64,000 bases of DNA from assembly GCA_019022495.1 (NCBI GenBank), contig JAFEKR010000003.1:3782001-3846000 (forward strand). Direction: 5' to 3'. Below, one piece after another: positions 6,898 to 55,562 of this stretch. The notes beneath the pieces are model-generated. The model was not told where the DNA came from. It worked only from the letters and a program-made list of their open reading frames with translations, and did not search any database. Position numbers and translations under genes: made by a program. The DNA is from Epichloe hybrida. Its lineage: Eukaryota > Ascomycota > Sordariomycetes > Hypocreales > Clavicipitaceae. The number at the start of each line of letters is the position of its first letter. Position 1 is the first letter of the stretch.

Positions 6898-7159
6898 TAT
6901 CGCTATGTGGCACGTGACTTTGGGAAAAGATGTGATTAGAAGGGATAATTAAAGGCAGAAGAAGTAATTGAATGAATCTAATTTTATTATACAAATAGAA
7001 GGGCAAAAGCTCCTCTTTTATAGAGAGAGTAGCTATAGTAAACTCGTATACTTCTTTTCTAAGATCACATATTCATTCAAGGTGTAGTTTTAGCTTCCCT
7101 AATATATTCATACGCGCATAACGCGTATAATTAGTTATATTACCTGCTACTAGGTAACA
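6898..7159 (-). repeat. 3' LTR of the copia element
   Basis: 262 bases, equal in length to the other LTR. In element orientation it starts TGTTACC and ends CGATA (CA decayed to TA). Its outer end (low coordinates) keeps G and C where the other copy has A and T; its inner end is heavily mutated. Confidence 0.93.
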
Positions 7160-9385
7160 CACCCCCTAATTAGTATTAAAGCTATTAAGACTACTAATTA
7201 TTATATTAACTAGTGAATATATAGTATTATTATTATAGGCAAACCTAATATAAGGTTAAAGTAAGCTTTCTTACTTTTACTCCCTTACTTCTTTCCTCTA
7301 AAGGCTCTTCTAATATAATATTTATAAGCTTCCTTTTCTTACCTTTATAATATACTTTCTATTAACTATCCCTATATTTTAATTAATATATCTCTTTATA
7401 TAGTAAAATAAGCTAAGGAGAAAGCTTGCTCCTAGGAGAGCTTAACTACTCCTAAGCATAAGCTTTATATTACTTAAACTTTATTATTAAATTATATTCT
7501 AGGTCTTTATATAACCTATAATACTTAAGTTCCTTTCCTAGTATACTCTAAGTAGCTTACTAGTAAGTTATTATCTTCTATAATTATAGTAAGAGGGTAT
7601 TCTAAGTACACTTCTCTATAAACCTTATATTCTCTAAGAGGCTAGGTAAGAGGTAGTATAAGGCATAATCCTTTATATAGTTTATAGAAGCTACTTATTT
7701 ATACTATACTTTTCCCTTTTAACTTATAAGTACTAACTTTATAGCCTAATAAACCTATACCTTATAGTGCTTTATAAGATATACCTTATAATAGGTGTGT
7801 TTAAGTAAGTATTATAGGTAAGGGTAACTTAGGTTATTACTATAAGGTTAGGTCTAGATAATCTTAGAGATATTACTTATATAAGGTTAGTAATTACTAT
7901 TATTAACTATTATATAATACTTATATTCCCCTTACTAAGCGGATATTATTAGTGCTAAATAAGAACTATCAGGTAAGGCATATTCTATTCCCTTTTCTTA
8001 TACTCCTTCTAAATAACCTATATAAATAGTAAAGTATTACTATAAGGCTTTATAACTTTAATTAGAACTTATTATAGAGCTAGACTTTATGTATAAAGAA
8101 GTTATTACTCTAAGCACTAGGGCTATTAATACTACTAGGGGCTCTTTAGTAAAGGCTAATAAGAAGGTAACTAAGGTAATAGCCTATCTTAAGGAGGTTA
8201 TTTACCTCCTTATATAAGTCTTATCCTTTTTCTTTATTAGAATAGCGTTTATATATATGTTTTTATATAGTAGTGTTTTAAAGTTTATATTCTACTAATT
8301 CTATTTACCTTAGTAGCGCTTTACTTACTAAGGAGGGGGCCTTCTTGTATTTCTAAGGTAATTAATTTTATACCCCCTTATTAATATTCCTACACTTCCT
8401 TAGTAACCTATACGCTTTAAATATTATATAGTATGTGTAAATCTACTAACCTAAGTATTAATCTAAAGCGTTTAAATTACTCCTAATTCAATGCCTTAGT
8501 GAATCCATTAGTAGGTATTTTAGCTATTAGTAAATACATAATCTTAAAGCTTCCTTTCTTAAATTCTTACTTTAACTATATATTATAAATATTAATATAA
8601 CATAGTTAAGTGTTTAATTACTCACTCTTATTTAATACAAGCTAAATTGTTTGCTAATTATCGTAATTAATAACCTAATCTTTATAGGCATTGAATTTAA
8701 TGTCTTTAAATAGGCGCTATAGACTTATAGTCTCCTTTGCTACTTATTATAAAGCAAGTAATTTAGCTTCTATTATAAACATAGTTATAGTTATTTAGCA
8801 CGTAGCTTTCTAGATAATTAGTTTACTAAAGAGAGTAATTAGGTATTCTTATAATAATTTACGTGTCTTAAGATTATTTACAAATAAAGCATTACTTAAG
8901 ATCTAAAGAGCTTAAAGTTTAGTGCTTATACTAAAGCATAGCATAAGTTTATATATAATAAGTAAATAGCAGATAGCTTAGTCTATAGCCTTTATATACT
9001 CTAGTCCCGGATTTATAAGGTATTATAATAGCTTTGCTACTACAAAGGTAATATCTAGTCTAATTATAATCATAGTGTATAGGATTAATCTAATTTTCTC
9101 TTAGTAAATCTTAATTACCTACTTCTCTGCTTTACCTATAAACTTATAATACTTTACTACTAGAATTAGTATAGTAAGGAAAGTGCCTTTTCCTACTTAG
9201 CTAAATTTCTCCCTAATCTTGCTAATATATACCTTATAACTAAGATATACCCTTTGCTATAGTTAGTCTCTAATAATCTGGATCCTAAGAAAGAATCCTA
9301 CCTTACCTTTTTTATCTAATTTATACGCCTCCTTTAGTCCCTTAGAGATCTAGTTAGTAGTCTTCTTATTATCCTTATAAAAAGC

Positions 9386-9845
9386 TATAAGAATATTATT
9401 TATAAAGAATATAAGGAAAACAGTCTAATCTTTTATATAGAATAAGTAGGGCTTCTCTTAGCTTAATTTAAGCCTAAGCTTCTTAAGAGACTTACTTAGT
9501 TCTTTAAACTAGAGCTATAGAGAGTCCCTTAATCTATATAAAGCCTTAAGTAATTCTACATACTCTCTAAGTACTATAAAGCTATTAGGAAGTTTATATA
9601 TTATAGGAATTCCCTCTTTTCTATATTTTACGTAAAGGAAAGTATTCTTAATATTATACTACCTAGTCTCTAAATTAAACCTAGTAACTAGCGCTATAAA
9701 CACATAGAATACGTGCGTAGCAAGCGTTATAGTATAAGTGCGTTTAATTATTAAGGTTTCCTAGAGATCTCCACGCACACATAAACACACCTTATAATAA
9801 ATTAATATCCCCTTCTTATTAAACTTATAAGAAAACACCTATTTT
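9386..9845 (-). pseudogene. Copia reverse transcriptase remnant
   Basis: Decayed coding sequence read on the minus strand. Around 9845-9762 it still spells a WVFSYKFNKKGILIYYK-like segment ending CVRGDL, the start of the copia RT domain. Around 9409-9386 it spells FFINNILI, which is the YVDDILI active-site box with Asp-to-Asn changes expected from G-to-A mutation. Stops and frame losses fill the rest. It cannot encode a working enzyme. The RT lies nearer the 3' LTR than the unread 5' two thirds, which fits copia gene order (integrase before RT). Confidence 0.8.
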
Positions 9846-12798
9846 AGTGGCAAAGGCTTTAATTAAGCTACTAAATGCTTTATTTACTACTATATTCCTT
9901 GTTCTTTTAGCTTATTAATCTCTTTATTTATTATATTAATCTATTCCTCCTTAAGAGGATAATCCTTTGCTCTTTTCTATAACTTTAGAGGTTTAGTAAG
10001 GTCTAATTAATAGATAGTCCTTACTTTCCTCTTTAGTTTAAGGAGTAATCTACTTTCCTTATTATAATATATATTAATCACTAAAAACACTATTTTATAG
10101 CTCTTAAAATCCTAATCTCCTAGAAAGAGCTTATAAAGGTCTCTATCCTTAGTCTTCCTAAACTCTAAAAAGAGATCTTTTAGGTCCTAGAGGCTATTAA
10201 TAAGAGCTTTATTAAGTCCTTTCCTCTTTCTCCTTACTAGCAGAGCATATAAAGAAATCTAGCCCTACTCTCTTTTAGTTTATAATCTTAAGCTAGTCTA
10301 TATACTTTCTTATATTATAACTATTCTAAGGCTCTCTTCTATAATTCCTAACTATATAGCTAGAGCTCCCTTTAAGCTTTCTATGTAAGTAGCTAGTCTA
10401 GTATTTACTCCTATAGGTTTATCTTATTACTAGTTTACTTTAGTTCCTAGCTTAGGTAGTTAATTACCTATTAAGTTATTAATAACTTAGTCCTTAGTAT
10501 TATATACTTAGTGTTCTAGAACCTTATAAGGATATTAGCTCTCCTAAGCCCTTATAGCAGTATCCTACTTACTACTTATTAAATCTATTATTATATTACT
10601 CCCTTAAGCATATAAATCTAAAGCTTTATGCTCTATTTTGCTCTACTAAGCATTTAGATTAGGAGTCTCCTACTCTCTAATTAGAGAATTTAGTAATAGC
10701 TAAGGTATTTAAAGTCTAATATTCTTATTAAAATAAATAGCTTCTCTTTCCTTTAGTTATAATTAAGAAGTCTATAGGGCGTTCACCTCTAAGTTTAAAC
10801 TCTTAGTCTATTCTATTTAAGGTTTAATTAGTATAAGGAAAAGATTTAATTTATTATCTAATTTAGTGTTAATTTTAAGGGCTTAGAATTACACTTTAAG
10901 CTCATTAATTATAAGCTTAATCGCGCTCTCCTATGCTACATTGTAAAAAATCAACTTGTTAAACATAACGTTTCTTGTTATTATAACCTTTCCTAGCTTT
11001 AGGATCTAAATATAATAAATATTAGAGGCGAAATACCTAATAAGATATCTAATATAACCCCTAGGATATATCTTATAAAACCATCTATGTTTATTAGCTT
11101 TATAATCCCTTTCTAAAGGATAGGCGCAGCAGCCATATACATATAACCTGCTTTAATCTAGCCTTAGGTTAGCTATAGGCTCTTAAATTAGTAATTAAGC
11201 ATTATTATAGAACTAGCTTTCTAGAGTCTCTAGTAGTGTTTTCTACCTAGATTATTAAATAGGACTAATATTATATAAGTACGCTACTGCTTATATGCTC
11301 TCTAACTATAGGTTTAGTGGTAGCCCTACACCTATAAGCATTATATTTAACTATAGTGTAATTATCTACCTTACCCTTTCTACTACTCTATTTAGTTTAT
11401 AAGTATATAGTGGCATAAGCTCTAGATTAATACCTTATAAGCATGCCCATGTTTAAAAGATTATATTAGTAAATTAGCTAATAACAGCTCCCTTATAATC
11501 TTGCCTAATCTTTATAATTAATAGTCTAAATTGCCTTGCAACCTATTATTTAAAGTAAATAAGTATATTAAACACTATTACTTATAACTTATTAGGTAAC
11601 GCATAAACCTAAATTATACCTAAGAACTTATCTTTTATAACTAATAACTAGTTTATACTATTATAACTAGTCTTATAGTCCTAAAGGTCCTAATAGATTC
11701 TCTAGAATAGCCTTAGTAATATATGTTCTAGTAGTCTTCTTAAAATAACCTAGCAGGCATAGACTAGAGTATATATCTTATAGTCTCTATGCTTTATTCT
11801 ATATAATTACACTCCCCTTATATAAGTATAACTCTTAGCTAGAGCATCCCTTCTAAGGTAACTAGAACATAAGTGCTAAAGTTCTTTAGGGTTTGCTTAT
11901 ATAGGGCGCAGGTCTTTACTTAGGTAACCGCGCTATAAGTATTATTTATTATTATTTTCTTCTAAATTAATCGTTAAGAATATCACTAGTGCTATAGTTA
12001 AATTCACTAATTACTTAGGACTATTATAAGAGAAAAGAGGCTTATATTAAAGGAAAATAATATTATGCTTCCTTTAAAGCTTAGCTAATAACAAGCTCTT
12101 ATAGTAAGGTCTAATACGCAAGGAGCAGTCCGCTCCGTAATACTAAACACCCTTCTTCTAAAGAAAGCTCTCTAATATAATATTTATATAAAATCCTTCT
12201 ACTAATATAATATTCTATAAAGTAAGGTTTTCTATAAGTTCTCCCTTTAGCCTATTAAAGATATTTCTAATTATATAAGTACCTCTTCCTATAATCTAGA
12301 AAGAGGTTATTCTAGCCTTAAGGTAATTATTAACAGTCTCTTTAAAGGTTCTAGGCTTAAAGTAACTTATATTATTAATAACATAAAGAGCGCCATAGTT
12401 ATTAAAGAGAGTGCTCTCTAAGAGCATATACTTTATATTCTCTAGTATAGTATAGCTTCCCTTTAGAGAAGCTATACTCTTAAGAATCTTAGGGTTAATA
12501 ATTACTATAGTAATAGCACTAGGTAACTTCTTTTCTTTATAATCTTTAATACCTTTTACTATCCACCTATCCTTTACAACCTTAGCACATAGGTTCTTCT
12601 ATTCTACGCTCTTATAGTATTCCTTAACCTTCCTATAGTTAATCTTTATAAAGGGTTTAAATCCTTAAACCTTTTCACTAATTACTATATAGTATAAGGT
12701 ATAACACGCTTAGGGAGACTAAAAGTAAGAATTTAGTACTTTACCTATCTAGTATAGGCACTTCTTAGGACTATTATTCTTCTAGTCTTACTTCTTAT

Positions 12799-12879
12799 TG
12801 TTAAAATATATTATTAAAAATATATAAGGCTTTGTAATCCTAGGTTCAGTCGGATCGGTCCACTCTTTTGATTTCAACA
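12799..12879 (+). repeat. Left LTR of the TRIM
   Basis: 81 bases, TGTTAAAA...TTTCAACA, with a TATA-like AAAATATATAAGG. It differs from the right copy at 12847 and 12851 (C here, T there). Confidence 0.92.
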
Positions 12880-12891
12880 GGTTATGAGCCC
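12880..12891 (+). other. TRIM primer-binding site
   Basis: GGTTATGAGCCC directly follows the left LTR. It is the complement of the initiator-Met tRNA anticodon stem-loop (CAU anticodon within GGGCTCATAACC). Confidence 0.8.
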
Positions 12892-12987
12892 GGTGGCGCA
12901 GTGGTTGTGGCTCACTGTAGCGTATTAGCCCGCCCACCATAGTGGAGCACTGCTTTGCGAGGCAAGGTTATGGGTTCGAACCCTGCC
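12891..12987 (+). other. tRNA-like segment with pol III box A and box B, inside the TRIM
   Basis: TGGCGCAGTGG (12894-12904) matches the tRNA box A consensus and GGTTCGAACCC (12973-12983) matches box B. CGGTGG near 12891 can pair with CTGCCG after box B using two G-T wobbles, giving an acceptor-like stem. The boxes are about 70 bases apart and no clean anticodon arm forms, so it is not called as a working tRNA gene. It resembles a SINE head. Confidence 0.6.
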
Positions 12988-13061
12988 GAAAAAAAAACAA
13001 CTAAAGAAATTCAATTGCTAGTATAAGCCTAACCTCTAATAGGGCACCTAGATATACAATT

Positions 13062-13071
13062 CCAGGGGGAG
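13062..13071 (+). other. TRIM polypurine tract
   Basis: CAGGGGGAGTG-like purine run ending exactly where the right LTR begins; the expected site for plus-strand priming. Confidence 0.75.
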
Positions 13072-13152
13072 TGTTAAAATATATTATTAAAAATATATAA
13101 GGCTTTGTAATCCTAGGTTTAGTTGGATCGGTCCACTCTTTTGATTTCAACA
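13072..13152 (+). repeat. Right LTR of the TRIM
   Basis: 81 bases, identical to the left copy except T at 13120 and 13124. The first is a CpA-to-TpA change, the dinucleotide preferred by RIP. Confidence 0.92.
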
Positions 13153-14095
13153 CTTATTACCTTAGTTAGAATATTCCCTAAGTGTAGTTATAAAGCTCCC
13201 TTTATTAAAGTTAGCATATATAGTTTGTATTACCCTATAGTATTAAGTATACTTAGCTATAATACCTATAAGAGTAACATCCTTAGGAAGAGAGTCTAAG
13301 GTCTATACTAGCTATATAATCTTAGTTTTTACTTATTTAGGGTTAAAGCACGCTTTAACTACTATAATAAAGTTATAAATTATTTTAGGACCCTAAACTT
13401 TATTAATCTTATATATTAAGGCTTTCTAGTATAGCTTCCCTTACTACTTATTCTAATACTTAAATTAAATATTCATGTATTTAGTGTTATTAAGGTATAC
13501 TATATACTTAGCTATAACTTTTACTTTAATAATAACTTAGCTAGGTAAGAACTTTTTCTTAAGTTTAATAGAAATTTAGTAAAGAGTTAGCTTCTTATTA
13601 TTAGTATTTCCTTCCTTAATCTTATTAATTACTATTATATAAGCATTAGAATTAATAGTACTAGTAATCTAGGTTCTAATAGTCCTCTCTCTAGACTTAG
13701 TTACCTTATATACTTAATACTTAGTTATATACTTATAAAAAAGAAAGGAAAAAGCCTCTTAGAAAGTAAGCTTAGTTTTCTCACTTCCTTAGTTCTTTAT
13801 AATAAGAGCTTTATAAGCCTCTAGTGTAATTATAGAGAGCTCTATAAAATAGTTAGTATTAAGCTTTAGGAGCTAAGGATTAACTCTCTCCTAAATCTCT
13901 TAGCTTTAGGTAGCTTACTTTAATACTTTATACTATTTCTCTTACTTATTAAATAAGACTAACTTAATATTAGTCTTAAGACTTAGGTAAGGAGAAGTTA
14001 AGGTATTTATTATAAGCATAGATTAGTAAGTAAGGCGTAGTGCACATATAAGTCTTGTGTGTAGGGATTTTTAGTGAAGTTATAGGTATGTACCT

Positions 14096-14109
14096 CCTAG
14101 GCTTATAAC
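14096..14109 (-). other. Primer-binding site remnant (initiator Met half-tRNA type)
   Basis: Directly inside the 5' LTR the minus strand reads GTTATAAGCCTAGG. If G-to-A and C-to-T changes are reversed, this matches GTTATGAGCCC, the complement of the anticodon stem-loop of initiator methionine tRNA, the priming mode of copia-type elements. The nested TRIM carries the undecayed version. Confidence 0.65.
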
Positions 14110-14371
14110 TATTACTATATAGTATATAACTTTAGGAAAAGATATAATTAAAAGGGATAATTAAAGGCAGAAGAAGTAATTAAATTAATCTAATTCTATT
14201 GTATAAATAGAAGGGTAAAAGCTCCTCTTTTATAAAGAGAGTAGCCGTAGTAAACTCATATGCTTCTTTTCCAAGATCGCACATTTATTCGAGGTGCAGT
14301 TTCAGCTTCCCTGATACGTTCGTACGCGCATAACGCGTACGATCGGTCATATTACCCGCTGCCGGGCAACA
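14110..14371 (-). repeat. 5' LTR of the copia element
   Basis: 262 bases. Its outer end (high coordinates) retains the GC-rich form, starting TGTTGCCCGGCAG in element orientation. The inner end is AT-shifted relative to the 3' LTR. The two LTRs therefore preserve complementary halves of the original sequence. Confidence 0.93.
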
Positions 14372-51638: not shown

Positions 51639-54600
51639 ATGTCGAGAATCGACAAGCTCTCCATCTCAGGAGTCAGGTCGTTTAGTCCATCTGTGCGGGA
51701 GGCGATACAATTCAACACCCCCTTGACCCTGATCGTGGGGTACAATGGATCCGGAAAAACGACCATCATAGAGTGTCTCAAGTATGCCACCACCGGAGAG
51801 CTGCCGCCCAACAGCAAGGGCGGCGCTTTTATTCACGATCCCAAGCTCTGTGGAGAGAAGGAGGTGATGGCCCAAGTGAAGTTGCAGTTCCGCTCCATCA
51901 ATGATCGCCAACATGTCGCCACTCGAAGCATGCAGCTCACGGTCAAGAAGACAACCAGGTCTCAAAAAACGCTCGATTGTTCTCTGGTCGTAGTGAACAA
52001 TGGCGAGAGGACAACAACTTCCACCAGGCAAGCGCAGCTGGACGAAATGATCCCAGAACGACTTGGTGTATCTCCTGCCATTCTCGATGCAGTCATTTTC
52101 TGTCACCAAGATGAATCACTCTGGCCACTCAGCGAGCCAGCCGCGCTGAAAAAACGATTCGACGAGATTTTCGAAGCTCTCAAATATACCAAAGCCATCG
52201 ACAACCTGAAAGTCCTCCGCAAAAAACATGTCGAACAACTGGGAAAACTACAAAACGATGAGGCACACAACAAGGTCAACAAGGATCGAGGCGAGAAGGC
52301 CGAGAAGCGGATGACTGGCCTGCAGTCCGAAATCGAAGACGCCCGGGAGAAATGCGAATCCCTTTCTTCCGAAATGCAGGAAACACGGGACAAGGTTCGC
52401 CAGAAACATGAACAGGCAAACAGCTATCTTCAGATAGTGCAGAACCTGAGCAACAAGCGAGAGCAGTTGACATACCGTCAGGATGCTGTCAATGAGCTCA
52501 GGCAAACGTTTGACGAGTTACCAGGTGACGATGCGTCTTTGGAGGACTCTTTGGGACAATATGAGCAGAGCATGGAGCGGTATCGCGAGGAAGCCGAACG
52601 GAACAAGTCTCAGTACAGTGGTTTACAAGAAGAGCTAGCCAGTGCACGCAAGAACCTTTCTACGAAATTATCGCAGCAGGGAAAACATCAGTCTGATAAA
52701 GACAAATATGAGCAACAAATTCAAGCTCGCATGGAAATGATCCAGGAAGCTGCCGGCACGTACGGTTTTCGCGGCTACGATGGGCACCTGACCGATCAAC
52801 ACGTGAAGTCTTTCAAGGAGAAAATCCAAAAGTTACTAGGCGACAAGAAACGAGATATCGAGTGCTTGCAAAGGGAGAATGCCACGGAACTCGATGCAGC
52901 AACAGGCGTCATCACAGAGTTGGAGGGGCAAAAGGCTGCCAGAACCCAGGACCGCGTATCGGCCAAGCAGCGTATTGGGGCTATTGAAAAGCGCACCGGA
53001 ACTCTGCAGAATGAAGCCAGCCTGATCAACGTTGATGAAGGTGCCAAGGCTATCCTCGACGGACAGCTCGAGGACATCAGCACAAGGTTCGACAGATTAC
53101 AAGCCGAGCTGGAAAAGGCAAATTGGGACAGGCAACTATCTGATGAAAATGACAAGTTGCGCAACTTGGAGAATGACAATGAGAAGCTGAGCACAGAACT
53201 CGTCGAGTGCACACGCCAAGCGTCGGAAAGAGCGCAGCTCGATTACAGGAAAAAAGAGGTTGCTGATAGAAGGAGGAAGCTGGAGACACTCACTACCACC
53301 TGGAAGCCAAAACTCTCTGCCGCCATCGGCAACGACTGGGACATTGACACTTTGGAATACAAGTTCCAAGCGACTTCAAGCCAGCAAAACAAGTCACTAC
53401 AGGAGGCCCGCAAAGTCCTCGAGCACACCAAGCAGAAGCAACAGAAGGTAGAGTACAAGCTAAAGAATATCAAAGAGTCGCAGGAAACAAAAACCCGAGA
53501 CGCTGGAAAGTGCGAGCAGGACGTCCTCAAGATACTGCACGAGGTAAGAGATGGTGTGACCATTGGTGATTATCCGGGCGAGGTAGCAGCTATGGAACAG
53601 CAAGTGGAGGAGTATCGCAACGAACTGAGTCTTTTCGATGCTCTTGTGGACTACTACACCAAATGCAGGCGGATGCTGGAGTCCAAGAAGAGGTGCCTGT
53701 TGTGTGAACGCCACTTTGATGATGATCAAAGTGCCAGCTTGGACCGTCTCAGTAAGAAGATTGAAAAGCAACTGAACCCAAAAGGCAAAGTGGACGTCGA
53801 GAAGGATTTGAAGGACTCCATGGTGAGCTTGGACGCTCTCCGCGCGGTTCGGTCCTCCTACGACACGTACAAGAGACTCAGCTCGGAGTTACCATCACTC
53901 CGCGACGAAAGCAGGTCCATCGAATCAGAATTCGATGCTCTTGAACGCCAGCTGGAGGAGCACGAAGCCAGGGTAGCTGGCGAAGAAGAGAGAGCTCGCG
54001 ATTTGGATGACCTGGCCAAGACTGTGTCAACCATGTCCCAGCTGAGTAAGGATATCAAGGAGTCCGAGGGGCAGGTGGACCGTATCATGTCACAGCAAAT
54101 GTCTGGCGGCGCGACCCGAAGCGCAGACGAGATTCATGAGCTCCAAGCCAGCATTGGAGAACAACTCAGGGGCCTCAAATCCCGAATTTCCAAGCTCACT
54201 ACGGATAGACAGCGGATGAAGGACCAGCTGAGCTCTCTGGAGCTCGAGCGAAGTGAGCTCAGGAACAAAATCGGCCTTGCTATAGGACAGCTGGACAAAA
54301 AGGCCGACATGCAGACTCAAATACAGTCTCTCAAGGAAGACATGGCCCACCAGCGAGAAATCATCCATCGCGCCGACGAAGCACTTGAAAAGGTCGAGCC
54401 AAGAATCGAGGACGCCAGATCGGCCCGCGACGAAACACTTCAAAGAGGGCGCGCCAAGGAACAGGTGATTGTCGATGAACGAGACGCGATTTCCAACTCG
54501 ATCAGTGAAATCAAGATGCTGGACAAAGACATCCAGGCCTACATCGACCAAGGGGGCCCTTCCAACCTGGCGTCGAACGAGCGTGCCATTGCAGCCCTGG

Positions 54601-55562
54601 AGAAGTCCATCACCGACTTGGACAGGGACATTGCGGATCTCACCGTGCGGGCGAACAAATTGAAGCAAGACATCGACAGCGGTGATCGCAAGAAGAAGAA
54701 CATTACCGATAACCTCAACTACCGCAAGCATCTGCGCCAGCTCGAAGTCCTGCGACGGGATATTGCAGATCTCGAGGAGCGCAACGCCCATGAAGACTAT
54801 GAACGTCTTCTGAGTGAGGCGCGGGTTCTAGAAAACCGGTCGAACCGGCTGCTAGCCGAGCGAGGATCCGTCATGGGCATAATGAAGTCCAAAGACGAGG
54901 AGCTGGGCCGGCTCCTGAAAGAATGGGAAATTGACTACAAAGACGCCAAGCACAAGTACCGCGAGTCTCACATTCGGGTCGAGACGACCAAAGCCGCGAT
55001 AGAGGACCTGGCCCAGTGCGGCGCCGCTGTGGACCGAGCCGTGATGCAATTCCACTCGATGAAGATGGCCGAAGTGAACCGCATCGCGGGCGAGCTCTGG
55101 CAAAGCACGTACCAAGGAACCGACATTGACACGATCCTCATCCGGTCCGACAACGAATCCAACTCTGGCAAGCGCAGCTACAACTACCGTCTCTGCATGG
55201 TGAAGCAGGACACAGAAATGGACATGCGCGGCCGCTGCTCGGCGGGACAAAAAGTGCTGGCCAGCATCGTCATCCGTCTTGCGCTCGCCGAGTCCTTTGG
55301 CGTCAACTGCGGCCTCATTGCGCTCGACGAACCCACGACGAACCTGGACCGCGACAACATCAAGAGTCTGGCCGAGAGCCTCCACGCCATCATCAAGACG
55401 CGTCAGGCGCAGAGTAATTTCCAGCTCATAGTGATTACGCACGACGAAGACTTTTTACGTCACATGCGGTGCAGCGATTTCTGCGACAGCTTCTTTCGTG
55501 TCAAGCGTGACGAGAGACAGAATAGCGTCATTGCGCGGGAGAGCATCACCAAGATTTTTTGA
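51639..55562 (+). CDS. RAD50: DNA double-strand break repair ATPase Rad50
   Basis: ATPase and tether of the Mre11-Rad50-Nbs1 complex, which senses and processes double-strand breaks and telomere ends. Single exon, 1307 residues, close to the yeast protein. The start MSRIDKLSISGVRSFSPSVR is conserved. Walker A is GYNGSGKT at about residues 34-41, followed by the Q-loop region VIFCHQDESLWPLSEP. Residues about 190-680 and 700-1140 are two antiparallel coiled-coil arms. The zinc hook CLLC lies near residue 686. The ABC signature RCSAGQKVLAS is near residue 1198 and Walker B with D-loop, LIALDEPTTNLDRDN, near 1225-1240; ITHDEDFLRHM is the switch His. All catalytic motifs intact. A complete lack of introns over 3.9 kb is notable among these intron-bearing neighbours. 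Confidence 0.98.
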   Translation: MSRIDKLSISGVRSFSPSVREAIQFNTPLTLIVGYNGSGKTTIIECLKYATTGELPPNSKGGAFIHDPKLCGEKEVMAQVKLQFRSINDRQHVATRSMQLTVKKTTRSQKTLDCSLVVVNNGERTTTSTRQAQLDEMIPERLGVSPAILDAVIFCHQDESLWPLSEPAALKKRFDEIFEALKYTKAIDNLKVLRKKHVEQLGKLQNDEAHNKVNKDRGEKAEKRMTGLQSEIEDAREKCESLSSEMQETRDKVRQKHEQANSYLQIVQNLSNKREQLTYRQDAVNELRQTFDELPGDDASLEDSLGQYEQSMERYREEAERNKSQYSGLQEELASARKNLSTKLSQQGKHQSDKDKYEQQIQARMEMIQEAAGTYGFRGYDGHLTDQHVKSFKEKIQKLLGDKKRDIECLQRENATELDAATGVITELEGQKAARTQDRVSAKQRIGAIEKRTGTLQNEASLINVDEGAKAILDGQLEDISTRFDRLQAELEKANWDRQLSDENDKLRNLENDNEKLSTELVECTRQASERAQLDYRKKEVADRRRKLETLTTTWKPKLSAAIGNDWDIDTLEYKFQATSSQQNKSLQEARKVLEHTKQKQQKVEYKLKNIKESQETKTRDAGKCEQDVLKILHEVRDGVTIGDYPGEVAAMEQQVEEYRNELSLFDALVDYYTKCRRMLESKKRCLLCERHFDDDQSASLDRLSKKIEKQLNPKGKVDVEKDLKDSMVSLDALRAVRSSYDTYKRLSSELPSLRDESRSIESEFDALERQLEEHEARVAGEEERARDLDDLAKTVSTMSQLSKDIKESEGQVDRIMSQQMSGGATRSADEIHELQASIGEQLRGLKSRISKLTTDRQRMKDQLSSLELERSELRNKIGLAIGQLDKKADMQTQIQSLKEDMAHQREIIHRADEALEKVEPRIEDARSARDETLQRGRAKEQVIVDERDAISNSISEIKMLDKDIQAYIDQGGPSNLASNERAIAALEKSITDLDRDIADLTVRANKLKQDIDSGDRKKKNITDNLNYRKHLRQLEVLRRDIADLEERNAHEDYERLLSEARVLENRSNRLLAERGSVMGIMKSKDEELGRLLKEWEIDYKDAKHKYRESHIRVETTKAAIEDLAQCGAAVDRAVMQFHSMKMAEVNRIAGELWQSTYQGTDIDTILIRSDNESNSGKRSYNYRLCMVKQDTEMDMRGRCSAGQKVLASIVIRLALAESFGVNCGLIALDEPTTNLDRDNIKSLAESLHAIIKTRQAQSNFQLIVITHDEDFLRHMRCSDFCDSFFRVKRDERQNSVIARESITKIF

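What the first reader, a model, noticed from the sequence alone, without database searches (positions are those of the whole stretch)
12799..13152. Complete, apparently recent TRIM nested in a dead copia element
In 354 bases it has two 81-base LTRs differing at 2 positions, a perfect CTTAT target duplication, an intact primer-binding site directly after the left LTR and a purine tract directly before the right LTR. TRIMs are known as a class; I do not recognise this family. The LTRs are unusually short, and the interior (192 bases) codes for nothing, so it must be moved by another element's proteins.
Basis: partly seen in the sequence, partly recalled or inferred. Interest (0 to 1): 0.8.

Follow-up and report, generated by a model that had tools for sequence, protein, structure and literature searches.

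The report
TRIM fused with its Copia helper
A 354-base mobile DNA parasite in a grass-endophyte fungus is one of about a hundred related copies, and a number of these are joined end to end with one particular large Copia retrotransposon, which points unusually directly to whose enzymes move such miniature elements.

Summary
It is a family: a whole-genome pattern scan counts 114 interiors and 209 LTR ends. Of 48 loci tested, 44 have perfect 5-bp duplications outside the outermost TRIM LTRs, and 20 of 37 have a related uninterrupted site. The host is an Epichloe (RAD50).

(2) TRIM and this Copia occur fused at the LTR/PBS border: 18 Copia-LTR|TRIM junctions and 21 TRIM-LTR|Copia junctions. The three composites with both ends read have perfect duplications, and one locus has a Copia 5' LTR and a TRIM 3' LTR within one duplication. 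Template switching between co-packaged RNAs explains this best. (3) The interior, not the LTR, carries tRNA-type A and B boxes and a poly(A) tract, unlike Helenus or Cassandra; their function is untested.

The parts
12794..12798 (.). target site duplication CTTAT, left copy
12799..12879 (+). 5' LTR, 81 nt, TGTTAAAA...TTTCAACA
   Evidence: ends recur at 44 of 48 loci with duplications
12821..12829 (+). TATATAAGG, TATA-like box in the 5' LTR
   Evidence: present in 74 of 75 downstream LTRs examined; promoter role inferred
12850..12879 (+). putative R-U5 (LTR positions 52-81)
   Evidence: exactly this 30-nt stretch is duplicated at one TRIM-LTR|Copia junction (L102); one event, inference
12880..12893 (+). 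primer-binding site GGTTATGAGCCCGG, identical to the partner Copia's
   Evidence: tRNA identity recalled, not found in the genome
12894..12904 (+). tRNA-type A box TGGCGCAGTGG
   Evidence: A+B arrangement 1 in the window, 0.01 expected
12973..12983 (+). tRNA-type B box GGTTCGAACCC
12989..12997 (+). poly(A) tract, variable in length between copies
13064..13071 (+). polypurine tract AGGGGGAG
13072..13152 (+). 3' LTR, 81 nt
13153..13157 (.). target site duplication CTTAT, right copy
6898..7159 (.). LTR remnant of the older copia-like element that hosts the TRIM
   Evidence: 83% identical to 14110-14371
14110..14371 (.). other LTR remnant of the host element
8486..9838 (-). copia-like pol remnant of the host element
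   Evidence: E 3.7e-10; no blastn match to the partner Copia loci

Best explanation
This is one copy of a TRIM family whose RNA is packaged, reverse transcribed and integrated by the enzymes of one abundant Copia family of the same genome. Shown: identical PBS, matching LTR ends, 5-bp duplications, and fusions of the two elements at the LTR/PBS border that carry single perfect duplications. Inferred: both RNAs share a particle; the primer is a fragment of initiator tRNA; when minus-strand synthesis reaches a PBS it can continue on a second RNA with the same PBS, giving homotypic (TRIM-TRIM) and heterotypic (TRIM-Copia) arrays with shared inner LTRs; plus-strand strong-stop DNA of one element can be transferred to the other. 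The genomic RNA probably starts in the LTR from its TATA box (one 30-nt duplication suggests LTR position 52). The interior also holds a tRNA-derived, SINE-like segment whose role is open.
For: Family and mobility. Partner: all 30 RVT_2 loci fetched were read for it; 29 of 30 show the same PPT plus LTR start TGTTAAAAATAAG (L035 did not), 568 exact LTR-start matches genome-wide, PBS GGTTATGAGCCCGG identical over 14 bases and LTR ending TTTCAATA; RVT_2 and Pol_BBD domains over Pfam cut-offs. Fusions: 18 Copia-LTR|TRIM and 21 of 62 matches TRIM-LTR|Copia, confirmed by BLAST at 12 and 7 fetched loci. LTR_T-int_C-LTR_C-int_T-LTR_T with perfect duplications: C13 AGGTT, C90 GTTTT, C135 TATAG (the middle rests on RVT_2 hits). 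L054: Copia 5' LTR, TRIM 3' LTR, duplication GAACC on both sides. Arrays integrated as units: six arrays among the 20 loci with empty sites. Array units differ from one another as much as units of different loci: 13.0 against 14.1, P 0.15; 0 of 26 units have their nearest neighbour in the same array. In 6 of 8 homotypic arrays with mixed LTR lengths the two outer LTRs agree while an inner one differs.
Against: No RNA, particle or transposition assay. With transitions left out, units of one array are somewhat closer than chance (3.35 against 4.49, P 0.014; 7 of 26). Outer LTR lengths disagree in 2 of 8 mixed arrays (L058, L085). Most of the 18 and 21 junctions were seen as pattern matches only, and some are duplicate loci (for instance C1:3301140/C128 and C1:3365367/C113). 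Fusions with Copia LTRs at both outer ends were not checked for duplications: the request failed eight times. The Copia's own duplication was not read. Initiator tRNA was not located (my pattern's spacing was wrong).
Confidence: 0.82

Rival explanations
1. The arrays arose in the chromosome: unequal crossing-over between LTRs for TRIM-TRIM arrays, and recombination of one-LTR cDNA circles with integrated elements at the shared 22-base LTR-end/PBS stretch for TRIM-Copia composites.
For: Circle recombination also predicts equal outer LTRs and one duplication (seen in C13, C90, C135). Unequal crossing-over is the published explanation for Wukong and ta-TRIM arrays (PMC4528315, PMC4558846, passages read). 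Transition-free distances within arrays are a little lower.
Against: Unequal crossing-over predicts near-identical units and uniform LTR lengths; 0 of 26 units have their nearest neighbour in the same array and 8 of 10 arrays mix LTR lengths. It cannot join elements with unrelated LTRs. L054 (Copia 5' LTR, TRIM 3' LTR, one duplication) is hard to get from a circle. Ectopic crossing-over between two loci would mismatch the duplications.
Confidence: 0.18
2. The internal A and B boxes are a working RNA polymerase III promoter that makes or boosts the TRIM RNA (a TRIMp3 with its promoter in the interior).
For: A+B arrangement 1 in the window against 0.01 expected. Non-RIP changes 0.000 and 0.001 per site in the boxes, 0.013 in the spacer, and the indels between the boxes and the PBS all fall in the spacer. 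In 70 of 75 copies the first run of four or more T after the PBS lies in the 3' LTR.
Against: A start just upstream of the A box would leave out R-U5, and the LTR carries the same T4. No tRNA match in Rfam at E up to 5 or by ARAGORN; fold no better than shuffles. The LTR has its own TATA box. Copies are too alike for a strong test of constraint.
Confidence: 0.25
3. The tRNA-like segment plus poly(A) is a SINE that once landed in the interior of an ancestral TRIM and is passive cargo.
For: Order A box, B box, poly(A) of variable length, as in a SINE; published origin idea for Helenus and Cassandra (PMC10886601, parts 1-4 read).
Against: No free SINE copy among the 40 scored of 123 candidates, though weaker ones could be missed; no TRIM copy without it was seen among the 75 units; no flanking duplication recognised.
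Confidence: 0.5
4. The TRIM persists because its ~350 bases lie under the length that RIP recognises.
For: Element GC 0.415 against flank GC 0.318, 34 of 37 flanks under 0.40.
Against: CpA-to-TpA is 13.9% against 0.9% for CpC in the TRIM itself, and single copies are not less affected than arrays (P 0.90) or composites (P 0.28).
Confidence: 0.1

Closest known systems
TRIMs / SMARTs of plants (FRetro129 and its candidate FRetro64; TA-TRIMs)
   Same: Size, TG...CA LTRs under 100 nt, PBS, PPT, 5-bp duplications, tandem arrays, Copia candidate helper (PMC3281118, PMC4717578; passages read)
   Different: Helper there is proposed from sequence similarity; here TRIM and Copia are physically fused within single duplications. 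LTR class of 67 nt. Fungal host.
Helenus (TRIMp3 with tRNA-like LTRs)
   Same: tRNA-type boxes, 5-bp duplication in fungi, PBS to an initiator anticodon loop, Copia-type partner, fungi (PMC10886601, parts 1-4 of 6 and passages read)
   Different: Here the boxes lie in the interior after the PBS, not in the LTRs; host is an ascomycete, whereas the fungal Helenus reported in the parts read are from rusts and agarics
Cassandra
   Same: Miniature element with polymerase III-type sequence and tandem arrays; template switching proposed for the arrays (PMC7215508, passages read)
   Different: Cassandra has 5S rRNA sequence in the LTRs; its array units are described as not different; no heterotypic arrays in the passages read
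ta-TRIM and candidate helper lennie
   Same: Helper chosen by LTR ends, PBS and duplication length (PMC4558846, passages read)
   Different: No fusion of the two; tandem units very similar there
RetroCl1 of Colletotrichum
   Same: Named as a fungal TRIM-like element (recalled; one search gave listings only)
   Different: Sequence not compared

Membership tests
TRIM | two short direct LTRs, under about 1 kb in all | tested here: met
TRIM | PBS after the 5' LTR and PPT before the 3' LTR | tested here: met
TRIM | target site duplication, repeated at different loci | tested here: met
   44 of 48 loci; 20 of 37 with an empty site
TRIM | no coding capacity; moved in trans | tested here: inconclusive
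   no coding interior; trans-mobilisation inferred from fusions, not assayed
Helenus | tRNA-derived sequence inside the LTRs | tested here: not met
   boxes at 12894-12983, in the interior
Cassandra / Ajax | 5S rRNA-derived sequence in the LTRs | tested here: not met
   no 5S match in Rfam at E up to 5 over 12700-13250
TRIMp3 (working polymerase III promoter) | polymerase III transcription | not testable with these tools
   boxes only
Retrozyme | hammerhead ribozyme in the LTRs | tested here: not met
   no ribozyme match in Rfam at E up to 5
tRNA-derived SINE | A and B boxes followed by poly(A) | tested here: met
tRNA-derived SINE | free copies with their own duplications | tested here: inconclusive
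   none among 40 scored of 123 candidates

The most novel reading that the evidence does not exclude
A TRIM whose genomic RNA depends on a polymerase III promoter lying in its interior rather than its LTR, helped by the LTR TATA box, and which routinely reverse transcribes together with its Copia helper, so that TRIM-ended composites carrying the whole Copia interior move as units.
Probability: 0.15. Interest if true: 0.75.

Novelty: new variant of a known kind. Interest (0 to 1): 0.5.

Why it matters
Which autonomous element moves a given TRIM has mostly been argued from short shared motifs; a 2016 survey says the interaction still needs to be verified (PMC4717578, passages). Integrated TRIM-Copia fusions with single target duplications are a physical record that both were copied together. 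They give a genome-only way to find the helper of any miniature LTR element, and they separate two explanations of TRIM arrays. I saw no such fusions described in the papers I searched for or in the passages read.

Tried and rejected
RIP escape by small size: not supported. Unequal crossing-over as the source of arrays: disfavoured. Self-cleaving ribozyme or known RNA family: no match at E up to 5 in 12700-13250 other than three weak, unrelated ones. tRNA gene: ARAGORN none in the window. RNA fold: no better than shuffles. Two recalled initiator-tRNA patterns gave nothing; I later saw that their spacing was off by one base against the yeast tRNA as I recall it, so they say nothing. Two open segments of the host element: no Pfam match.

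Rows not used: of 114 interiors 75 units from 60 loci were aligned; L049's truncated unit did not parse, and solo or partial pieces (L087-L091, L105, L106) were left out.

Full report
OBSERVATION. The stretch 12799-13152 reads exactly as described: 81-nt LTRs with two C/T differences, CTTAT on both sides, a 192-base interior that begins with GGTTATGAGCCCGG and ends with AGGGGGAG. It lies in AT-rich DNA (GC about 0.29) between two 83% identical 262-base repeats 7.2 kb apart, with a copia-like pol remnant on the other strand. So it is nested in an old copia-like element, which is not the partner Copia described below (no blastn match other than the TRIM itself).

FAMILY. The genome holding the window has 79.86 Mb in 156 contigs. 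The full element gave 56 matches although only 40 of 127 candidates were scored. Pattern scans, which count completely, gave 114 interiors (PBS plus A box, up to 3 mismatches; control 0) and 209 LTR 3' ends. Of 40 loci fetched with flanks, 37 have a perfect 5-bp duplication outside the outermost TRIM LTRs; the exceptions are a truncated copy (L049), one ending in an inverted LTR (L064) and one whose left LTR is a Copia LTR (L054). Of 8 more, 7 have one (L082 not). Joining the two flanks and searching the fetched loci found an uninterrupted related site for 20 of 37 (L050's best alignment has 2 gap columns near the junction, its second-best none). These are sites in related repeats, not orthologous loci. 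LTRs come in two length classes, 81 and 67-68 nt, the longer holding a near-repeat of its first 13-14 bases. Among 28 single copies 8 LTR pairs are identical. Flanks are AT-rich: 34 of 37 under 40% GC.

HOST. RAD50 encoded at 51639-55562 is 97% identical to a protein named Epichloe festucae Fl1. The 80-Mb size would fit an interspecific hybrid; that is inference. Some loci are duplicated with identical flanks (L067/L068).

HELPER. All 30 RVT_2 loci fetched were inspected; 29 show one PPT plus LTR start, ending in TGTTAAAAATAAG. The 25-base LTR start occurs 568 times exactly. One copy's 5' LTR is 581 nt and is followed by GGTTATGAGCCCGG, the first 14 bases of the TRIM interior. Both elements begin TGTTAAAA and end TTTCAA[CT]A. 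RVT_2 and Pol_BBD pass Pfam cut-offs; an SH3-like match is below its cut-off. Many copies carry stops.

FUSIONS. Beyond TRIM-TRIM arrays (two to four interiors sharing LTRs, within one duplication), TRIM and Copia are joined. Copia LTR directly followed by TRIM interior: 18 places at up to 3 mismatches, and at least four more found by BLAST (L084, L102, L103, L104). TRIM LTR directly followed by Copia interior: 21 of the 62 matches (the other 41 are TRIM-TRIM). At least two loci are duplicates in each list. For three composites, both ends were read: C13 (AGGTT), C90 (GTTTT) and C135 (TATAG), each TRIM LTR - Copia interior - Copia LTR - TRIM interior - TRIM LTR with a perfect duplication; the middle is inferred from RVT_2 hits at C13:11876, C90:379336 and C135:2192853. 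L054 is Copia LTR - TRIM interior - TRIM LTR - TRIM interior - TRIM LTR with GAACC on both sides.

MECHANISM. In reverse transcription both outer LTRs normally come from one strong-stop DNA, so an array made by switching templates at the PBS should have equal outer LTRs whatever lies inside. In 6 of 8 homotypic arrays with mixed LTR lengths that holds (L041, L046, L060, L061, L062, L063; not L058, L085), and in 3 of the 4 fusions with both ends known (not L054, which would need plus-strand transfer between molecules). Array units are no closer to each other than to units elsewhere (13.0 against 14.1 differences, P 0.15; 0 of 26 nearest neighbours); leaving out transitions they are somewhat closer (P 0.014; 7 of 26). 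One junction (L102, and its duplicate locus C83) has the last 30 bases of the LTR twice; if that is a strong-stop R-U5, RNA starts at LTR position 52, 29 bases after the start of the TATA box, which is present in 74 of 75 LTRs. Recombination with one-LTR circles would also give equal outer LTRs and is not excluded.

INTERIOR. A+B boxes in tRNA spacing style occur once in the window against 0.01 expected; poly(A) of variable length follows. Infernal and ARAGORN do not see a tRNA. The boxes show almost only C-to-T-type changes. A polymerase III start near the A box would miss R-U5, so either the LTR drives the genomic RNA and the segment is relic or accessory, or the boxes act with the LTR TATA box; the data do not decide.

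RIP. C-to-T changes are 272 of 1950 at CpA, 22 of 2400 at CpC, 39 of 1780 at CpT, 54 of 1042 at CpG. Single copies are not spared relative to arrays (P 0.90) or composites (P 0.28).

KNOWN KINDS. It is a TRIM by structure. It works like the fungal Helenus elements in PBS type, duplication and Copia link (PMC10886601), but fails Helenus' defining feature, the tRNA sequence in the LTR. Tandem TRIMs are known (PMC4717578, PMC7215508, PMC4528315); arrays mixing a TRIM with its helper did not turn up in the searches or in the passages read. The library lacks most subscription papers and all preprints.

Noticed in passing
G000:C95:327960-335490 (L105, L106): A 67-nt-LTR TRIM whose interior is interrupted by an insertion of about 7 kb.
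   Followed up: partly
L048 (C73:402416-402750): 5' LTR has a second LTR start and a PPT inside it (89 nt), as if second-strand synthesis had begun twice; duplication CAATT is intact.
   Followed up: no
L064 (C91:3260013-3260405): 3' LTR runs into an inverted partial LTR copy, a palindromic end.
   Followed up: no
L089 (C74:424536-424816): A Copia RVT_2 hit ends 22 bases before a TRIM interior that begins after its poly(A) tract: a possible internal Copia-TRIM switch at an A-rich stretch.
   Followed up: no
L067/L068 (C85/C77), C74/C83, C1/C113, C1/C128: Same insertions on two contigs, flanks identical where compared (L067/L068): duplicate contigs, homoeologues or segmental duplications of a possible hybrid genome.
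   Followed up: partly
window 12880-12891 with 12972-12982: In the predicted RNA fold the PBS pairs with the B-box stretch, but the fold is no better than shuffles.
   Followed up: partly
window 6898-14371: The host copia-like element is distant from the partner Copia (24% aa identity) and badly decayed, so at least two Copia lineages have been active.
   Followed up: partly
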